This document shows positions 10,551 through 21,259 of a DNA stretch of 21,259 nt, piece by piece. Under the pieces are notes generated by a model, which had not been told where the DNA came from, ran no database searches, and was given only the letters and a program-made list of their open reading frames with translations. Every line of letters starts with the position of its first letter. Position 1 is the stretch's first letter. The stretch covers positions 1-21,259 of the IMG/VR virus record IMGVR_UViG_3300032323_001524; one strand, written 5' to 3'. Position numbers and translations under genes: made by a program. The stretch is from a virus.

Positions 10551-12893
10551 TTATGCTGAGAAACTTGCTCCAGTTGGTAAGATGTTGAAATCAATTACGA
10601 TGAATTCAGCTGTCTTAGCCGGTTGTAAGAAAATTTGTCCCGCCATAATATTTCTATCTATTACATCCGGTGTGTTGTTGGTTTCATCCATCACCACTCT
10701 GAATGCGTATAGACCTTGTCTTTGTTGAATTGTTTCCAAATACGGATTAACAGTGTTCAAGAATCTTCCTCTTGTCTCTGAAGTATTTTGTTCGAATACT
10801 AAGAAACGAGATGTAGAAGCGATAAACTTTTTAACAGTGATAAGTAATCTTCTTACGTTGATTCTATCTAATGCTGAAGCCTTATCTTGCAATGTCTTCT
10901 GTCCGAATGCTACAATACCTTGTCCAGGAAATGCTGCGATTGGGTTTACTTTGTTCTCATATAGAGTATCTCTCTCCGCATGTGTTAATCTATTCAATAC
11001 ACTAACTGCTCCTACGATACCACCTCTATTTAAACCAGCAGGTGCGAACCATTCAGCTGCCAATCTATCGTTAGAAGCGTAAACCGCTGGTAACAATGTA
11101 GATGGTGGAACAGTTGTAAGTTTGTTAGTATTTGTATCAATTGTTTTAACCCAAGGATAGTAAGTACCAACATAGTTTGAATCAACTGCGTTAGCTTGTT
11201 CGGTTGCTTGAGTTATTGTATCTGAATAATCGTTGAAATCAGAGATATAGAATGCATCTTGTCTTTCTTCAACCATATCAATTACTCTAGTAACAATAGC
11301 TGGGTGTAAACTTCTTACAATACCAGGAGTTGCTACCATATTAATATCATACTCGTCAGGATTAGATACTGCCGCAATTGCTTTAGTATATGCTACTGAA
11401 CCAGATGATGTTGAAGTAGAACAATTGAATCCTTGTGTATTACCAGCACCCCATCCACTCTCACCAGCTTTTAATATTGGTGTTATTGGATTCATACCAT
11501 CAAATCCATGTTGGAATCCTAATACAAATTGTCTCTTAACCATATCAGATGAAACTGAACCAGTCATTTGGTAATTTAAACCATTTGCATCAAATGCGAA
11601 TGATACGTTAGAACCAATTTCGGTTAATGCTGTGTGTGTTGGTATTGGTTTTAAATAATTTAAGTTATCTATTTTGATACCAGATGTTTCAAAATCAAAT
11701 CCACTAAAATAGATTGGAGATGATGATGTGTTTCCAGTTGAATTTGTTTGGTATGTTACAGCAGGAACTAAAAGTGATTCTGCATTGTTTGTTGCTTCAA
11801 TTGGAAGTGAGTATGGTGCATGTCCAAATGGTGCTGCTGAAATTGGATTTGCTACACTATTAGGTGCCATTTCAACTCTAACATATTGTGATTTGTTTGT
11901 ATAATCACCAAATTCTGTCATTTTACCATCTAAACCAATTGTGAAATATCTATCACCAATTCTTCTAGCGATATAGTTTGGAGAAGCAGGGTCTAAGTTT
12001 ACATTGTTATATGTTTCAACAACACCCTTTCTCTTATCGGTATCATCAAATGAACGGATTGTCACAGTAAATGTAGAATAATCAGTACCACCATCTTCAC
12101 CAGCTGCTTTTACATTAGAAATACCAACTTTAAATTTAGTATTATATAATGTACCATGTCCTAAAGTTACAAATTTGAAAAGATTATATCTATCACCACT
12201 AATTAATTGTGATTGAACAAACGGAGTTTCAGCTGCTTTAGCATCGTCTGTAAAGTCTTGTGTTGGTAATACAACTCTATCTATTACAGTATTATGTGCA
12301 ATAGAACCAGTTGCAGAACCTGAATAATTAGATGCTAGATTTTCAAAGTAACTATATACATAAGCTGCTTTACTACCAAGTGGAGATTCCCCAAATACAT
12401 CACCTAAATCATTAGGGTCTGATGGTAATATAGATGCTGATATAATTCCGATACCACTTGCAGATACTACAAACTGTCCATCTAATGCATCATTACTAAC
12501 TACAGTTGCTCCCTGAAATCCGTAATTTTGAAATCCATTTTTTGTTGAGTGTAGTACACCAATTAGTTTTCTACCTAATCCAGCAGAACCACTTGCAAAA
12601 ATTCCTAAAGGTGCAGTTTGTTGGTATCCACCAATTCCACCTACTCTTACGATTGTTGCTATTCCAGCTTCTCTTAAATAGTTTTGTACTGCATATTCAG
12701 TATAATAAGTCCCATCAGGTGTTCCGAATATACTTTCGAATTCTGATTGTGTTCTCACAATAGTTGGAACGAATGCAGGTCCTTGCTTAAAAGGTCCTAT
12801 GAATGCTGCTCCAATTTCACCAATTCCTTGCGCTAAGAAGGATAGGTCATTTTCTCTTGTGAATACGCCAGGTGATACGATTCTTTCTGCCAT
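10551..12893 (-). CDS. gp18: Contractile tail sheath protein (T4 gp18-like)
   Basis: 780 residues (T4 gp18 has 659). The sheath forms a helical sleeve around the tube and contracts on infection. The N-terminus 'SPGVFTRENDLSFLAQGIGE' followed by 'GAAFIGPFKQGPAFVPTIV' and 'SEFESIFGTPDGTYYTEYAV' is diagnostic. The C-terminal domain has 'VNPIAAFPGQGIVAFGQKTL', 'LDRINVRRLLITVKKFIAS', 'FEQNTSETRGRFLNTVNPYL' and 'GQIFLQPAKTAEFIVIDFN', the conserved core that binds neighbouring subunits. The middle (about 120-450) is beta-rich and variable, as in other sheaths, and accounts for the extra length. A GGAG sequence lies 10 bases before the ATG. The gene follows a terminator and so starts a new unit. Confidence 0.96.
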   Translation of the reverse strand: MAERIVSPGVFTRENDLSFLAQGIGEIGAAFIGPFKQGPAFVPTIVRTQSEFESIFGTPDGTYYTEYAVQNYLREAGIATIVRVGGIGGYQQTAPLGIFASGSAGLGRKLIGVLHSTKNGFQNYGFQGATVVSNDALDGQFVVSASGIGIISASILPSDPNDLGDVFGESPLGSKAAYVYSYFENLASNYSGSATGSIAHNTVIDRVVLPTQDFTDDAKAAETPFVQSQLISGDRYNLFKFVTLGHGTLYNTKFKVGISNVKAAGEDGGTDYSTFTVTIRSFDDTDKRKGVVETYNNVNLDPASPNYIARRIGDRYFTIGLDGKMTEFGDYTNKSQYVRVEMAPNSVANPISAAPFGHAPYSLPIEATNNAESLLVPAVTYQTNSTGNTSSSPIYFSGFDFETSGIKIDNLNYLKPIPTHTALTEIGSNVSFAFDANGLNYQMTGSVSSDMVKRQFVLGFQHGFDGMNPITPILKAGESGWGAGNTQGFNCSTSTSSGSVAYTKAIAAVSNPDEYDINMVATPGIVRSLHPAIVTRVIDMVEERQDAFYISDFNDYSDTITQATEQANAVDSNYVGTYYPWVKTIDTNTNKLTTVPPSTLLPAVYASNDRLAAEWFAPAGLNRGGIVGAVSVLNRLTHAERDTLYENKVNPIAAFPGQGIVAFGQKTLQDKASALDRINVRRLLITVKKFIASTSRFLVFEQNTSETRGRFLNTVNPYLETIQQRQGLYAFRVVMDETNNTPDVIDRNIMAGQIFLQPAKTAEFIVIDFNILPTGASFSA

Positions 12894-14209: not shown

Positions 14210-14530
14210 TTACTCAAAACCTATTTTTTCTTTTAAATTTTTTATTTCAGCTCTAGCTTCATCCAATTCAGTTTTTAGTTCTTTAATAGCTTCCAATAGT
14301 AATGCTGGGATACCTCTATCTCTAAGTGCTAAATACCCATCAGAATCTTCTCTAACTAAATCAGGAATTATATCTTCAACTTCTTGTGCTATAAAACCAA
14401 TATCATGTCTTAGTTTTGTAGTTTCATATTCATCAGTACCTTCTCTCCAATCAAATTCAACCCCTCTCATTTTCATTACTTTTTCTAATGAATTTTCTAA
14501 AGGTTTTACATTATCCTTTAATCTTCTGTC
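14210..14530 (-). other. Peptidase S74 intramolecular chaperone domain of the fibre
   Basis: The last 106 residues begin [19 protein letters not shown] directly after a Ser (14531-14533), and continue 'GVEFDWREG', '[18 protein letters not shown]', '[20 protein letters not shown]', ending in a coiled coil. This is the conserved S74 layout. In the family, this domain trimerises, drives folding of the fibre and then cuts itself off at the conserved Ser-Asp, so the mature fibre should end at the Ser. Cleavage is inferred from the family. Confidence 0.92.
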
Positions 14531-17500
14531 CGAAGGAGAACCATACGCAATAATGTTGTTTGATGCAATAATCACACCATCATATCTTAAGTTGATAGTT
14601 GCACCACCACCTCTATTACCAGAAAATATTCTTAATCCTAAACTAGCACGAAGTGATAAGTACCCATCGTTTACATCTGCCAAATCTCCATCATCAGATA
14701 CCCAAATACCACCACCACCATAGTTATCAAAGTTTGCACGAAGTACATAGGGAGTACCCAAAGTATCATCGTTCAAATAGTATCTCTGCCATCTAGAAGA
14801 CCAACCACCCCATCTTATAAGGTTATCACCATCTAATCCTAAGTTAATAGCGTAATATCCAGATTTATGGAATGACATGAATGCTCCGTTATTACCAGTA
14901 GAGTATGGTTGACACATTGCCGAATCGGTTTGTGTACCATAGTATCCTCTATTGTATAAGAAGTATAATCTTGATGTTGTAGTAAAATCGTATGTTGGTA
15001 AACAATATTCAGCTCTGTTGTTAGAATCAATCATTGCTTTCCAACCAGATGGACCTGCCCAAGAGTTTCTAAACCACAATCTATCAACAGGTCCTCCTGT
15101 TATCTGCCATCCATAACCAGCACCATAAGTCCAAGAGTAGTGATATGCTTGCATACCCGTCCAATGCGAAGTACCAGGAGGTTGGTTACCAGGGTTTGAC
15201 CAGGTATCAAAGAAACAAGAACCCCAATCCATTATCCAGTTAAAGTCTACCGTACCCCAACCTTCAGCTCCGGTCCAATAGTTTCTATCTCCAGTATAAT
15301 CCTGAGGTCTACGATAATTTGATTTACCAGTCAGACCTATGTTACCTTTACCTCTATCAGTTAAACCTAACCATTGAGAACGAGAGTTAGAATCGATATA
15401 ATATCCAGTATCATCTCTATCATAGAAAATGTATGCTCTAGCATCATTCATAAATGTAATACGATACAACTCCATGTGAGCGTTACCATATTCAATACGA
15501 ATCTGCCAGTTACCAGAAGAGTTCAACATACCAAAACCACTACCATCCCAATATCCACAATATCCTCTTAAATCGGAGTTGTAGTTTCTATACATTAAAA
15601 TACCACCGTATCCATATCCACCACCGGCTGCTCTCCAATACCCATCATTTGTGTACCAGTGCATTCCGGTTGATTGGCTATATAAACCATGCCCGTTTGT
15701 ATTGTTTCTAAACCATCCGTTTACATAAAGGTCATAGAATGTAGGGTTTGCATCAGTTCTAACGTTTTGGTTGATGTAGTTACTCATCCAACCCATATAT
15801 CTATTCCAATAGTTTCCATCTCTAGCAAATTGGTGAGATTCTAAACCATCAGAACCATATCTCATAATATGATATCCGTTTTGAATTGCCTGAAAATATA
15901 AGTGAGCACTATGCCATTGTATTTTGTTATGTTCACCAGTCCAACCACCAGTATCCGAATATAACATGTGACCAGGCTGAATATATAAGTTGTTAGTATG
16001 TACAAAGTTCAATCGAGAAGAACCATTAGGGTCTAATCTATATCCAGTATCGTTTGTATCATACCAAATAGTTGCGTACATATCACCACCACTACCAAAG
16101 TAAGTGTTACCCCACCATAAGTTATGCACAATCATGTGATAACCATTAGCGTATAAATCATTTACGTTGAAATAGAAGTTTGAACGGTCAGTATAAATGT
16201 GAGCATGTGATGTGTTAGCAGGTCCAAATTCGATATATCCGAATGGAGTTTGATGTCTCCAACCCCAGCTACCACTTCTCCAAAAATATCCACCATCACC
16301 ATAATCGATTGTTGAAAGGCGAGAACGGCCGGCTGGGTCTACAAAGAATCCAGAGTTATTTCTATCATAATAAATTGGAGATTGTATTGCTCCCGGTACG
16401 TGAAATTCAGAACCATAAAAATATCCACTACCTTCAATGTTACCAGTACCAGCAGCTGATATGTAATCATTTACGTTTTGATACGTTGCTGTTGAATGGA
16501 ATACAACTCTACCCGTTGTTGCAATTCTAATTCTATCATGTATAGTTGCTGTATCAACATCATTACCTTTAAAAATTAATAATTCAGATTCGTCAGCATT
16601 TCTCCATAATCTTTCAACTAATGCAGTGTGGTTATATGAACCAGGGTTATCACCAGTAACCCCTCTAAAGTAAATACCTTGTGTAGAATCGTTTGGTGAA
16701 GATATTTCAATACCACCAATTCTAGATGTACCAGTTGGGTCTAAATAATATCCAGTATTATTACTATCATAAAATATAGGTGTTCTGATATCACCACTTA
16801 CAACAAGTATACCATTATGGTCTAAACTCATTTTAACATTAGACCAATCTGAACTACCTGCTCTACTTGTAAACCAAAAATGAGAGTGGTTTTCAGAAGA
16901 TACAGCTCCAATATTTTGCCAGTGTCCAGAATAATATCGTATATCATTTCCATAACTACGAATCATACCATCATAGTTACCAAATATACCTAATTCCAAT
17001 GAAGGATAATCACCTAAACCAGCAATTCGTAATCCAACAGTTCCATTAGAACCACCTCCACCTTGTCCATTTTGAATATTTAATCTCCATATACGAGATG
17101 TAGAAGTTGGGTCTATATAATAGTTAGTATCATTGTAATCATAGAATATTGGTGAACGCATCTGATTGTATGCGTAGAAAATACCACTACTAAATTCACC
17201 CCAGTTACTATTAGTACCAGCACCAAAGTATATTACACTACCATCATAATAGTTAATATAAGTAGCGTATCCACTACCAGCATCTAAGTGTAGGTTACCA
17301 TTTGTTGTTGCTACTGATGCGAAGGAACTATCAACATATCCATTTCTACCATCACCGCCAACTAAAAGGTATGCTCCCCAAGTTGGATTTGGTCCAAACA
17401 AGAAACCACCTCTCATTCTACCTGCGGATTGTCCTGTTGAGTTAGGGTCTATATAATACCCACTATCATTCGAATCATAAAATATACTACCATAAACAGA

Positions 17501-20500
17501 CCCACCAAACCATGCAATAGGAGAACCACTTTCTCTACCAATATATGCGTATTGGTTATTACCGGTGGTATTATCCATAAATCTCACATAAGAGTTGTTG
17601 TTGTTGTTATTACTATCAACTCTAAGGATAATATCATTGTATGAGTTAATACTCATTGAATCGGTAAATGAACCATTTAAATCAGTAGATGAAATACCAT
17701 GTTCAGCATAGTTATCATACGATGCGTTCCAGTCAAATGAAAGATATGCTAATCTTGATATGTAAGTACTCCAAACACCATAGTTACCCCATATAGAACG
17801 TTCACTCTGCATTCTAAATGAATTATCAGAACGAATGTAGCTATCATTGTAAAGAACCTTAGAACCTCTTACTCGTAAGAAAGTACTATCCGTCATAAAC
17901 CAGCCACCACCCCAGCCAAATCCTAGTTCTTCATCTTTTAAGAATGATGATGTACCTCTACCAAATACAATAGCATCGTTATTACCAAGTAATTGAATAG
18001 AACCATTTACAAATACTCTATTATTTGTAAAACTACCAACAGTTGCACTATTATCAGATGCGGTAAATGAAAAATCTGATGTTGCAAATCCTACCCTTGC
18101 TGATGAATCGGAGAACATTATTATTCCACCGCCATATCCATCTCTATTGAATTCAAATCCGTTATTGTTAAAGAATTGTCTACCACCGGATGCATTAATA
18201 CGAGTTTGCCAACTTCCCAATGTACCATTTGTATGTCCAAAGTATAAGAAGTTTGCAGAAGTTATAGCAGCATCTCCATTTATGTTTATACCAGTTACAT
18301 CATTTGCACCACCACCAACAGCTACTCTACTTAATCTACTAAATGAATTAGCATCTAAATAAAATCCAGTATCAGTTTGGTCATAATAAATTGTTGCAAA
18401 TAAATCACCACCACCATTAGCATTTACACCATAAATTGCAGGGTATCTCCAAGCATTAAAAGTACCATTATCACCATTTCTAGTTCTATATGCAAGTCCA
18501 GTTGAATTACCATAAGTTGCATTTAATTGTAGTGCATATCCACCGGCTCCAAACGAAACTAATTGTCCTGTATATGGTGCATTATTTGAATAAGTGAATC
18601 CCATTATAGGGGCTCCAGTGTATGAATTTGCATTTAATCCAGGGAATCCATAAGAACCCCAGCCCGGATCGAATAAAACGTTACCACCAAACGCAACATT
18701 CAAAACATTTAAATTTGATGTACTATTAGGGTCTAAATAAAATCCAGTGTTGTTTGAATCATAAAATATTGGTGCTCTTGCATCACTAAATAAAGCGATA
18801 GGTGAATTTGTTGTAAAATTTAATTGAGTACCATCCCAATTAAATCCTCTACGTCCATTCCAGTTATTATCAGATGGTAATGACCAGAAACCATTATTTT
18901 CTCCAGCAACATACGCACCATCAATAAGGATACCCATTTGTCCGTTGTTTGGTAAATCTCTACCAAATACTATTTCACCACCATTTACTGAAAATCCATA
19001 CCAACGAGAACCCGGCATATTTACTCCATACCAACCACCACCAATAGGAACAGTGTATGAAGTATAGTTTCCAGCATGTAGAGTTGTATTACCATTGATG
19101 TTAATGTAATCAGGACCAATAAGAACATCAGGTGTACCACTAAGTGCGTTACCACTAACATCTATTCTTAATGTATCAGGAGAAGATTCGTTATAAACAA
19201 TACCAAATCCAGGGTTTCCTGCATTATATTGCCAAATTGGAATATTTCCAGTTGTACCAGGTCCATATAATCCATTACTTGTAATTCTATTAAACGTTAC
19301 ACTATCAGTTGTTCTAATATTTTGATTCATTAAATGAACTTCCGTTGCACCCTGCCCAGTATCAACTGTGGCAAATATTACAGCATCAGTTGTACGAAGG
19401 TTTTGGTTCATTAAGAACACTTCGGTTGCACCTTGTCCAGTATCAATTGTTCCAGTAAGAACCACATTACCACTTACTGATAAAGTATTATCTGCTGTCC
19501 ATCTATCCGTACTTTCATCCCAATAAAATGATACGTTTGCCGATGAACCCCTTCTAACTTCTATACCAGCGTTTTCAGTTGGTGTACCTGTTGTGAAGTT
19601 TGAGTTAAGAGTTATAATATTATCAGCTAATAGGATTGTTTCAGTATTAATTGTGGTTGTTGTACCACTAACTGTTAAATTTCCTGTAATTGTAGCGTTA
19701 CCAGTTACGGTCAATAAAGTTCCATCAAAAGTTAAATTACTTTCAACAGTTCCATTTGGTGCAGTTCCGTTTAAGGTAATCACACCATTATCAGTTGTAC
19801 CAGTTAATGATAACAATCCAGATGTACCACCACTTCCAGATGAACCAGCTGAACCAGAAGTTCCTGAAGTTCCTCCGCTGCCACTTGTACCCGCACTTCC
19901 AGTAGTTCCTGATGTGCCACCACTTCCAGAAGTTCCTCTAGTGCCTGATGTTCCACCACTACCTGCCGTACCAGCTGACCCAGATGTTCCCGAAGTTCCA
20001 CCACTACCAGCAGTACCAGCTGACCCAGATGTACCAGACGTACCTCCACTTCCAGATGTACCTGTTGTTCCTGATGAGCCTCCACTACCAGACGTTCCTC
20101 TAGTTCCAGATGAACCACCACTTCCAGAACTTCCAGCTGAACCAGAAGTTCCAGCTGACCCAGATGTGCCAGTGGTACCTGATGTACCCGATGTGCCAGC
20201 ACTTCCAGATGTACCAGTAGTACCGGATGAGCCGGATGTACCACTATCTCCTGTTCTAGCAAATCCTACTACTAATTGTGCATTGTTAGAAGGTAATGTA
20301 CCACTTACATAAATTACAGGTATTTTAAAATATCCAGATGCATTTGTTACATTACCTGTAATTGTGAATATATTGTTTACCGTACCACTATCTCTTGATG
20401 AGAATATAAGATTACCTCTATTATTTGGTGTATTACTATCATCCCAACTATTAAACCATGCTAATTGGTTGTTACCACTTTGGTCTAATATATCAATGTA

Positions 20501-21259
20501 AATAAATGTTACAGATGCAATTGTTGCGTTATTATACTGAACCCTACCATTACCAGGATCGGAATCAGTTATTGTTGTAGAAAAATCATATTTTATTCCA
20601 CCACTTTGTCCGCTTGTACCACCACTACCACTTGTACCAGTTGTGCCAGAAGTTCCAGCCGAGCCAGAAGTCCCTGTTGTACCCGCCGAACCAGTTGAGC
20701 CTGATGTACCAGCTGAGCCGGTTGTACCAGAAGTTCCCGATGAACCTCCCGTACCAGACGAACCTGTTAATCCAGAAGAACCAGATGTTCCTCCACTACC
20801 GCTTGTGCCAGAAGTTCCACCACTACCAGAACTTCCCGATGAACCAGAAGACCCAGATGTACCAGCTGAACCACCAGTACCACCTGCTCCACTCAATCCA
20901 GAAGAACCCGATGTACCACCAGTACCTGTTGTGCCAGACGAACCAGATGTTCCCGATGTACCGCCTGTGCCAGACGTACCAGCCGAACCACCAGCGCCAC
21001 TTATACCACCACTACCAGCAGTGCCGCTTGTTCCACCACTACCAGACGTACCATTTATTCCCGATGAGCCATTTGTTCCAGAAGTTCCCGATGAGCCTGT
21101 TAATCCAGATGTGCCACTAGAACCAGTTGTACCAGATGTACCAGCTGAGCCTGTTGTACCAGCCGAACCTGTTGTACCCCCAGAACCGGTAGAACCAGAA
21201 GTTCCCGATGTGCCTCCACTTCCAGATGAACCACCACTACCAGAAGAACCAGATGTTCC
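14210..21259 (-). CDS. Giant collagen-like tail fibre with S74 chaperone, 5' end outside the window
   Basis: 2349 residues lie in the window and the frame stays open to the edge, so the start is elsewhere. The TTG at 20894-20896 is a Leu inside the repeat, not a start. Order, counted from the window edge: Gly-X-X block A (1 to about 218); a globular island (about 219-336) with '[19 protein letters not shown]'; Gly-X-X block B (about 337-482); a T4 fibre-like part with '[20 protein letters not shown]' and two '[18 protein letters not shown]' units; eight FYD modules (about 830-1960); and a peptidase S74 domain starting near the Ser-Asp at 2243-2244. Such fibres are trimers that bind the host surface. 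No separate gp38-type adhesin or fibre chaperone is seen. Receptor specificity is unknown. Confidence 0.93.
15381..18770 (-). repeat. Eight copies of an [18 protein letters not shown] module in the fibre
   Basis: Copies lie near 18720-18770, 18345-18395, 17443-17493, 17105-17153, 16731-16780, 16325-16375, 16021-16070 and 15381-15430. Each encodes a line like '[19 protein letters not shown]'. Spacing between copies is about 300 to 400 bases, except for two larger gaps (about 900 and 640). Each copy seems to open a new domain, so the segment is likely a chain of related beta domains with diverged sequences in between. Confidence 0.85.
19293..19450 (-). repeat. Two tandem [14 protein letters not shown] units in the fibre
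   Basis: Two adjacent units of about 75 bases encode '[20 protein letters not shown]' and '[20 protein letters not shown]', at about 19378-19450 and 19293-19375. They resemble the short shaft repeats of T4 long tail fibre proteins (...QN.RTTDS.TF...). DNA identity is moderate, so the duplication is not recent. Confidence 0.8.
19815..20252 (-). repeat. Collagen-like Gly-X-X block B
   Basis: About 146 residues in which every third residue is Gly, and the others are almost only Ser, Thr, Ala and Gly, with two Arg (GTRGTSG). No Pro is present. A unit of about 45 bases coding for [13 protein letters not shown] is repeated in tandem near 19940-20040. All four Gly codons are used. Confidence 0.92.
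20605..21259 (-). repeat. Collagen-like Gly-X-X block A, continues beyond the window
   Basis: At least 218 residues of uninterrupted Gly-X-X with Ser, Thr, Ala and Gly, and rare Leu, Asn and Ile (GLTG, GINGTSG, GTNG). No Pro is present. I checked the frame by eye and it has no stop up to position 21259. Confidence 0.92.

What the first reader, a model, noticed from the sequence alone, without database searches (positions are those of the whole stretch)
19815..21259. Proline-free Gly-X-X fibre shaft with an inserted globular island
Two long blocks of perfect Gly-X-X (at least 218 and about 146 residues) contain Ser, Thr, Ala and Gly but no Pro. Without Pro or hydroxyproline, a classic collagen triple helix would be weak, so another fold (for example a polyglycine II bundle) deserves thought. 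A 118-residue island with '[13 protein letters not shown]' separates the blocks. The 45-base tandem units in block B could change in number by recombination and so alter fibre length.
Basis: partly seen in the sequence, partly recalled or inferred. Interest (0 to 1): 0.55.

Follow-up and report, generated by a model that had tools for sequence, protein, structure and literature searches.

The report
Proline-free collagen-like phage tail fibre
A phage tail-fibre gene codes for two long collagen-like rods that lack proline and nearly all charge, joined by a small unnamed domain that also sits beside collagen-like rods in many other viral proteins.

Summary
On the minus strand, window 14210-21259 is one 2349-aa frame, cut by the contig end: block A (74 perfect Gly-X-X triplets), a 114-aa island, block B (49 triplets), then about 1,870 aa ending in an S74 endosialidase-type chaperone. 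There is no Pro; charge is 1 Asp and 2 Arg. Twelve relatives show a block A of 103-112 triplets and a block B of 36-68; complete ones give the missing start.

A polyglycine-II bundle gains no support. The runs are far longer than helices of known bundles, Gly is invariant among 10 homologues while neighbours vary, and AlphaFold2 finds no bundle. The same island lies between Pro-containing collagen repeats in other phages; one fibre has Pro-free repeats before it and GPT repeats after. Best reading: a trimeric fibre with collagen-type triple helices lacking both usual stabilisers, proline and charge pairs, held by the island and the S74 end. The triple helix is inferred, not shown.

The more interesting object is the island: a confidently predicted beta domain, unnamed in Pfam and NCBIfam, without a significant PDB fold match, encoded at 394 places in IMG/VR and predicted in giant-virus collagen proteins. 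New variant of a known kind.

The parts
14210..21259 (-). Tail-fibre gene, 2349 codons seen, 5' end cut off by the contig end
20594..21259 (-). Gly-X-X block A, at least 74 triplets, no Pro; 103-112 triplets in 12 relatives
20252..20593 (-). Island: unnamed 114-aa beta domain between the two blocks
19811..20251 (-). Gly-X-X block B, 49 triplets, no Pro, with a 45-base tandem unit
19297..19450 (-). 81-base tandem duplication after the shaft (about 1.9 copies)
14534..19810 (-). Distal fibre region with eight copies of a YD..[ND][ST][GN][YF].[LIV]D motif
14351..14533 (-). Peptidase_S74 intramolecular chaperone domain (residues 2243-2303)
   Evidence: PF13884, E 4.7e-18
10551..12893 (-). Tail sheath protein; shows that the window is a contractile-tailed phage

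Best explanation
The gene encodes a long, S74-terminated tail fibre of a contractile-tailed phage. Three parallel chains assemble from the C-terminal S74 end; blocks A and B each wind into a collagen-type triple-helical rod, and the island forms three folded domains side by side between the rods that keep the chains in register and re-nucleate the helix. Shown: reading frame, perfect register, S74 domain, invariance of Gly, the island as a separate folded domain (predicted), its repeated placement between Pro-containing and Pro-free Gly-X-X rods. Inferred: trimer state (from S74 and collagen-like fibres in general), triple helix, clamp role of the island. How the helix stays stable without proline or charge pairs is open; Ser/Thr hydration, cold water, the clamps at both ends, or sugars on Thr are candidates.
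For: S74 domain E 4.7e-18 and Pfam Collagen E 1.3e-21, 76.6 bits against a cut-off of 27.2 (the second reflects Gly periodicity). Among 10 aligned homologues of block B, Gly positions show 0 amino-acid differences in 2038 codon pairs although 53% of the pairs differ synonymously; X and Y positions differ in 34% and 38%. Indels change length by whole triplets. X and Y are unlike each other: Gly/Ala 3 in X against 39 in Y, Thr 63 against 17. The island has at least 4 Gly-X-X triplets on both sides in 97 of 114 distinct copies, 29 of these with Pro and 68 without. On a tree of 105 distinct islands, Pro and Pro-free neighbours exchange at least 9 times on the best tree, and starred branches force at least 4 changes for the Pro group. 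L063 has Pro-free GSS/GTS repeats before its island and GPT repeats after it. Phage DSL-LC01 (L015) and L014 hold the island between Pro-containing repeats.
Against: No trimer or triple helix was predicted or measured. Both stabilisers named in the literature, imino acids and arranged charges (passage of PMC13138384), are absent. A lone-chain model of block B is disordered, which fits several readings. The island also occurs without Gly-X-X rods: 6 of 114 copies, and mostly so in the 8 cellular-genome loci, so it is not strictly a collagen partner. The sample is the 80 best of 394, nearest to the window, which raises the share with rods.
Confidence: 0.66

Rival explanations
1. Polyglycine-II bundle: each chain folds back on itself into a compact stack of short 3-1 helices, as in snow flea antifreeze protein or phage S16 gp38.
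For: Gly every third residue without Pro also fits PPII bundles; Gly is 40% of block A (89 of 222).
Against: Bundle helices are short: sfAFP 10-11, gp38 6-9, ALK 4-9 residues between turns (table passage of PMC13243192). Here 222 to 336 residues run with no turn and no or few breaks. AlphaFold2 places no bundle in block B. The same island is flanked by GPT/GPQ repeats in kin.
Confidence: 0.05
2. Untwisted parallel trimer: three PPII chains side by side without the collagen superhelix, a state between collagen and polyglycine II.
For: Such a trimer was described for the C1q stem by cryo-EM and likened to sfAFP and S16 fibre packing (passages of PMC11869133); regions poor in imino acids already shift collagen symmetry to 10/3 (passage of PMC13138384).
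Against: In C1q hydroxyproline was found important for the assembly; nothing here tests twist.
Confidence: 0.12
3. Flexible, disordered Gly/Ser linker that only spaces the folded parts.
For: Composition is like artificial GS linkers; AlphaFold2 gives pLDDT about 30 for block B.
Against: A linker does not need register, yet Gly positions show 0 of 2038 amino-acid differences with 53% synonymous change, and lengths change by whole triplets; block A length is nearly fixed at 103-112 triplets in 12 relatives.
Confidence: 0.12
4. Glycosylated collagen-type rod: sugars on Thr/Ser supply the stability that Pro gives elsewhere.
For: Thr and Ser fill nearly all X positions (113 of 124); Thr glycosylation as a stabiliser is mentioned for other collagens in PMC3368898 (passage).
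Against: No Glycos_transf_2 in 8 of 8 contigs of the window's kin, Glycos_transf_1 in 1 of 8; these contigs are fragments and host enzymes are not excluded.
Confidence: 0.05

Closest known systems
Collagen-like side tail fibres of E. coli prophages (EPclA to EPclD)
   Same: Phage fibre with Gly-X-Y rods between folded domains, differences in length by multiples of three; rods up to 322 aa (passages of PMC3368898)
   Different: EPcl rods have Pro in 48% of X positions and many charges, and EPclA melts at 42 C; here no Pro, almost no charge, and Pfam hits only Collagen and Peptidase_S74 in the frame
Polyglycine-II or PPII bundle proteins (sfAFP, phage S16 gp38, ALK)
   Same: Gly-rich, Pro-poor periodic sequence
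   Different: Short helices with turns in one chain; here uninterrupted hundreds of residues
S74-terminated long tail fibres (several PHROG tail-fibre and baseplate families)
   Same: C-terminal chaperone region matches, e.g. phrog_8215 E 3.8e-27
   Different: Nearly all of the 19 PHROG matches cover only the C-terminal region; the island and a relative's start have no match
Collagen triple helix repeat proteins of uncultured phages and giant viruses in BFVD
   Same: Share the island fold: 25 of 43 matches at E<=0.001 bear that name, with Marseillevirus LCMAC102, Klosneuvirus and Indivirus entries
   Different: Only predicted models and names were seen; their repeat composition was not read here

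Membership tests
Collagen-like protein (Pfam PF01391 sense) | Long uninterrupted Gly-X-Y repeat | tested here: met
   74 and 49 perfect triplets; PF01391 76.6 bits over cut-off 27.2
Collagen-like protein (Pfam PF01391 sense) | Imino acids or charge pairs that stabilise the triple helix | tested here: not met
   0 Pro; 1 Asp and 2 Arg in 369 residues. I therefore say that it works like a collagen rod, not that it is a typical collagen
Collagen-like protein (Pfam PF01391 sense) | Triple-helical trimer | not testable with these tools
   Only single-chain prediction is offered; block B alone has mean pLDDT 39
Polyglycine-II / PPII bundle | Short PPII helices (about 4-11 aa) separated by turns in one chain | tested here: not met
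   No regular breaks in 222-336 residue blocks against helix lengths quoted in PMC13243192
E. coli EPcl collagen fibres | PfN / Pf2 / PCoil / PfC domains of the lambda Stf kind | tested here: inconclusive
   Pfam scan of the frame gives only Collagen and Peptidase_S74, but the start of the window's own protein is missing; a relative's 225-aa start has no match in phage records, PHROGs or NCBIfam
Peptidase_S74 / endosialidase chaperone fibres | C-terminal S74 domain | tested here: met
   PF13884 E 4.7e-18, residues 2243-2303, whole model 1-58
Peptidase_S74 / endosialidase chaperone fibres | Autocleavage and trimeric product | not tested
   Known for the family from memory; needs protein

The most novel reading that the evidence does not exclude
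A widespread viral module: an unnamed beta domain of a fold not yet seen acts as a trimeric clamp that lets Gly-X-X rods of almost any composition, even without proline and charge, fold into stable triple helices, and it has moved between tailed phages and giant viruses together with collagen-like rods.
Probability: 0.3. Interest if true: 0.75.

Novelty: new variant of a known kind. Interest (0 to 1): 0.5.

Why it matters
Collagen is taught to need proline or charge pairs. Natural rods of 100 or more triplets that hold Gly at every third place under selection, with neither stabiliser, would be a direct test of what a triple helix needs, and could serve as plain, genetically coded rods. The island offers a handle: a recurring, compact domain beside collagen-like rods in many viral sequences and, by predicted fold, in giant viruses, with no Pfam or NCBIfam name and no significant solved-structure match.

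Tried and rejected
Polyglycine-II bundle: rejected as main reading (see rivals). Disordered linker: unlikely because of Gly invariance. Triple beta-spiral with 15-residue repeats: considered because of the 45-base unit and dropped, as the units have almost no hydrophobic residues (inspection). Dedicated modifying enzymes: PF13640 (2OG-Fe oxygenase) 0 of 8, PF00535 0 of 8, PF00534 1 of 8 contigs of near kin, all fragments; I gave 8 of the kin contigs, not all.

Length variation in near-identical genomes: L012 against L011 (otherwise identical) differs by gaps of 37 and 217 bases, which break the frame, and has 12 triplets fewer in block B; I take this as assembly collapse and did not count L012. 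L009, L013 and other duplicate contigs were dropped before the count of 12 relatives. No long reads were available, so all lengths rest on assemblies.

Fold of the island: Foldseek against PDB gave 530 matches, 0 at E<=0.001. The VIA-align second look gave Z 5.6 at best (Upf1 helicase, 85 residues, rmsd 3.2), with PpaGal, an Sf11 phage tail chain, pyruvate kinases and T5 pb9 close behind. By the tool's own note such Z values may mean only a common arrangement, so I name no family. phmmer against PDB: 0. Pfam on 91 island members: only scattered weak matches, best E 0.0037. PHROGs: phrog_35140 matches 4 of 91, no function; four more families match 1-3 members at E 0.0013-0.0071. NCBIfam on the window's island: 0. 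The sequence match of block A to collagen chains of the PDB reflects Gly spacing only.

Low GC as a cause of Pro loss: Pro-free loci median GC 0.379 (39 loci), Pro loci 0.431 (15 loci), Mann-Whitney p 2.5e-4; loci are not independent, so this is only a hint.

Literature: nine searches. I saw the listings of all, and word-found passages only of PMC3368898, PMC8968730, PMC13243192, PMC11869133, PMC7029224 and PMC13138384. In what I saw, none describes this island or proline-free fibres of this kind; the library lacks most subscription papers.

Full report
What is there. The minus strand of the window carries one open frame, 14210-21259, that runs off the contig end. Its first 222 residues are 74 perfect Gly-X-X triplets (block A), then come a 114-residue island and 49 triplets (block B), with no Pro. 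Charged residues in the blocks are 1 Asp and 2 Arg. After block B come about 1,870 residues that end in a Peptidase_S74 domain (PF13884, E 4.7e-18). The record is a virus fragment of 21259 bases. Neighbours are a tail sheath (best phage-record matches: Microcystis phage Mel-JY01 48%, an uncultured 484-kb phage 45%, Flavobacterium phage immuto 38%), a gp19-like tube protein (E 3e-06, just under Pfam's cut-off) and a DUF7936 protein. So this is a tail fibre of a contractile-tailed phage.

The missing start. Ten IMG/VR loci carry the island with 55-94% identity. Complete relatives begin MEYLG and have 220-252 residues before block A. The 225-aa start of L006 has no match in phage records, PHROGs or NCBIfam. 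The window therefore lacks about 220-250 residues and some 29-38 triplets; this is inferred from kin.

Lengths. In the 12 relatives that I kept, block A spans 103-112 triplets and block B has 36-68 Gly triplets (window 49); Pro occurs once, in L031. Block A of L006, L010, L011 and some others holds one or two breaks. Length changes are whole triplets: pairwise gaps in the block B alignment are multiples of three residues in 180 of 210 cases, and the other 30 come as 4-and-1 pairs with a net of three. So repeat number does vary in block B between lineages, and hardly in block A.

Selection on glycine. Across 10 homologues of block B, the Gly positions show 0 amino-acid differences in 2038 codon pairs while 53% of the pairs differ synonymously; X and Y differ in 34% and 38%. 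The register is kept by selection, not by fresh duplication. X and Y are also unlike: Thr 63 in X against 17 in Y; Gly or Ala 3 against 39. A disordered linker does not predict this.

The island. It gave 10 matching phage records by tblastn: Actinomycetia phage DSL-LC01, Pelagibacter phage HTVC010P (two records), a spring siphovirus and six Synechococcus records. A profile of 12 sequences found 394 encoding stretches of 455 pattern hits in IMG/VR; the best 80 were fetched. In these, the earlier loci and the window I found 240 copies in 102 frames, many from duplicate contigs, or 114 distinct copies with their flanks. Of the 114, 97 have four or more Gly-X-X triplets on both sides, 11 on one side, 6 on none. 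Of the 97, 29 contain Pro and 68 do not. The repeats differ widely: GTS/GSS, GPT, GPQ, GAQ, GTQ and GNQ kinds. Some fibres hold up to 12 islands as beads between GNQ repeats (L092). This sample is nearest to the window and so overstates the link. In cellular genomes, 8 of 107 pattern hits are relatives (Kaistia, Devosia, Mesorhizobium, Pelagibacteraceae and others), and there the domain is mostly in tandem or alone without long rods.

Exchange of rods. On a tree of 105 distinct islands (119 columns, weakly resolved), Pro-containing and Pro-free neighbours need 9 changes on the best tree, and starred branches force at least 4 for the Pro group; the labels are clustered all the same (0 of 500 shuffles as low for these two groups). 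The 12 rows with few Pro and the 6 without rods were left out of the count of 9. L063 holds Pro-free Ser/Thr repeats before the island and Pro-rich GPT repeats after it. The two kinds of rod thus stand in the same place next to the same domain, which is the best argument that both fold alike.

Structure. AlphaFold2 with 91 aligned islands gives a confident domain (pLDDT 90.5, pTM 0.86; seven strands and one helix). Foldseek finds no PDB match at E<=0.001 among 530; the second look gives Z 5.6 at best, which is not enough to name a fold. Against predicted viral structures there are 43 matches at E<=0.001, 25 of them named collagen triple helix repeat proteins, including five from Marseillevirus LCMAC102, Klosneuvirus KNV1 and Indivirus ILV1 with TM-scores of 0.76-0.84 on the query. 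Pfam has no convincing family in 91 members; PHROGs has one family without function for 4 of 91. Block B alone gives no packed structure (pLDDT under 50 over residues 1-148).

Reading. Known polyglycine-II bundles use helices of about 4-11 residues between turns (PMC13243192 passage), unlike these blocks. Phage collagen fibres of E. coli are trimers with globular ends, and their rods differ by multiples of three (PMC3368898 passages). The S74 domain at the end of this fibre makes a parallel trimer likely (family knowledge, recalled). The simplest reading is a trimeric fibre with collagen-type rods, and the island as a folded joint between them. By the recalled rise of about 0.29 nm per residue, block A of the relatives would be about 90-97 nm and block B here about 43 nm long. 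What is unusual is that both stabilisers listed for triple helices, imino acids and arranged charges (PMC13138384 passage), are missing. An untwisted trimer as reported for C1q (PMC11869133 passages) is not excluded.

Limits. No trimer was modelled, no protein was measured, all relatives come from assemblies, and in one of them (L012) repeats appear collapsed. Novelty statements rest on the libraries and paper searches named under Tried and rejected.

Noticed in passing
L006:3-4274, L008:2-4279, L011:3-4253 (+ strand of each locus): In relatives a second gene upstream of the fibre codes for a Gly-X-X region of 1019-1040 residues with 316-335 triplets, 8 copies of a GL[DN]GT[FY]FG interruption, 27-35 acidic and no basic residues.
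   Followed up: partly
window 14210-19810, fibre residues 833-1956: Eight copies of a YD..[ND][ST][GN][YF].[LIV]D motif, 102-302 residues apart, in the distal fibre; they look like repeated shaft modules.
   Followed up: no
window 19297-19450: 81-base tandem duplication in the fibre gene after block B.
   Followed up: no
L092:2-8380 (+): A 2793-residue frame with 12 island copies strung between Pro-poor GNQ repeats, a beads-on-a-rod design.
   Followed up: partly
BFVD entries A0A481YTC9, A0A1V0SHP6, A0A1V0SIY6, A0A1V0SD64, A0A1V0SCQ2: Giant-virus collagen-like proteins share the island fold by Foldseek; direction of transfer unknown.
   Followed up: no
L012 against L011: Otherwise identical contig with gaps of 37 and 217 bases that break the fibre frame, probably assembly collapse in repeats.
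   Followed up: partly
L015:1-6671: Actinomycetia phage DSL-LC01 has three nearby genes annotated as collagen-like and, among them, one annotated as photosystem II assembly factor.
   Followed up: no
loci: Pro-free rods lie in loci of lower GC (median 0.379) than Pro-containing ones (0.431), p 2.5e-4 without correction for kinship.
   Followed up: partly
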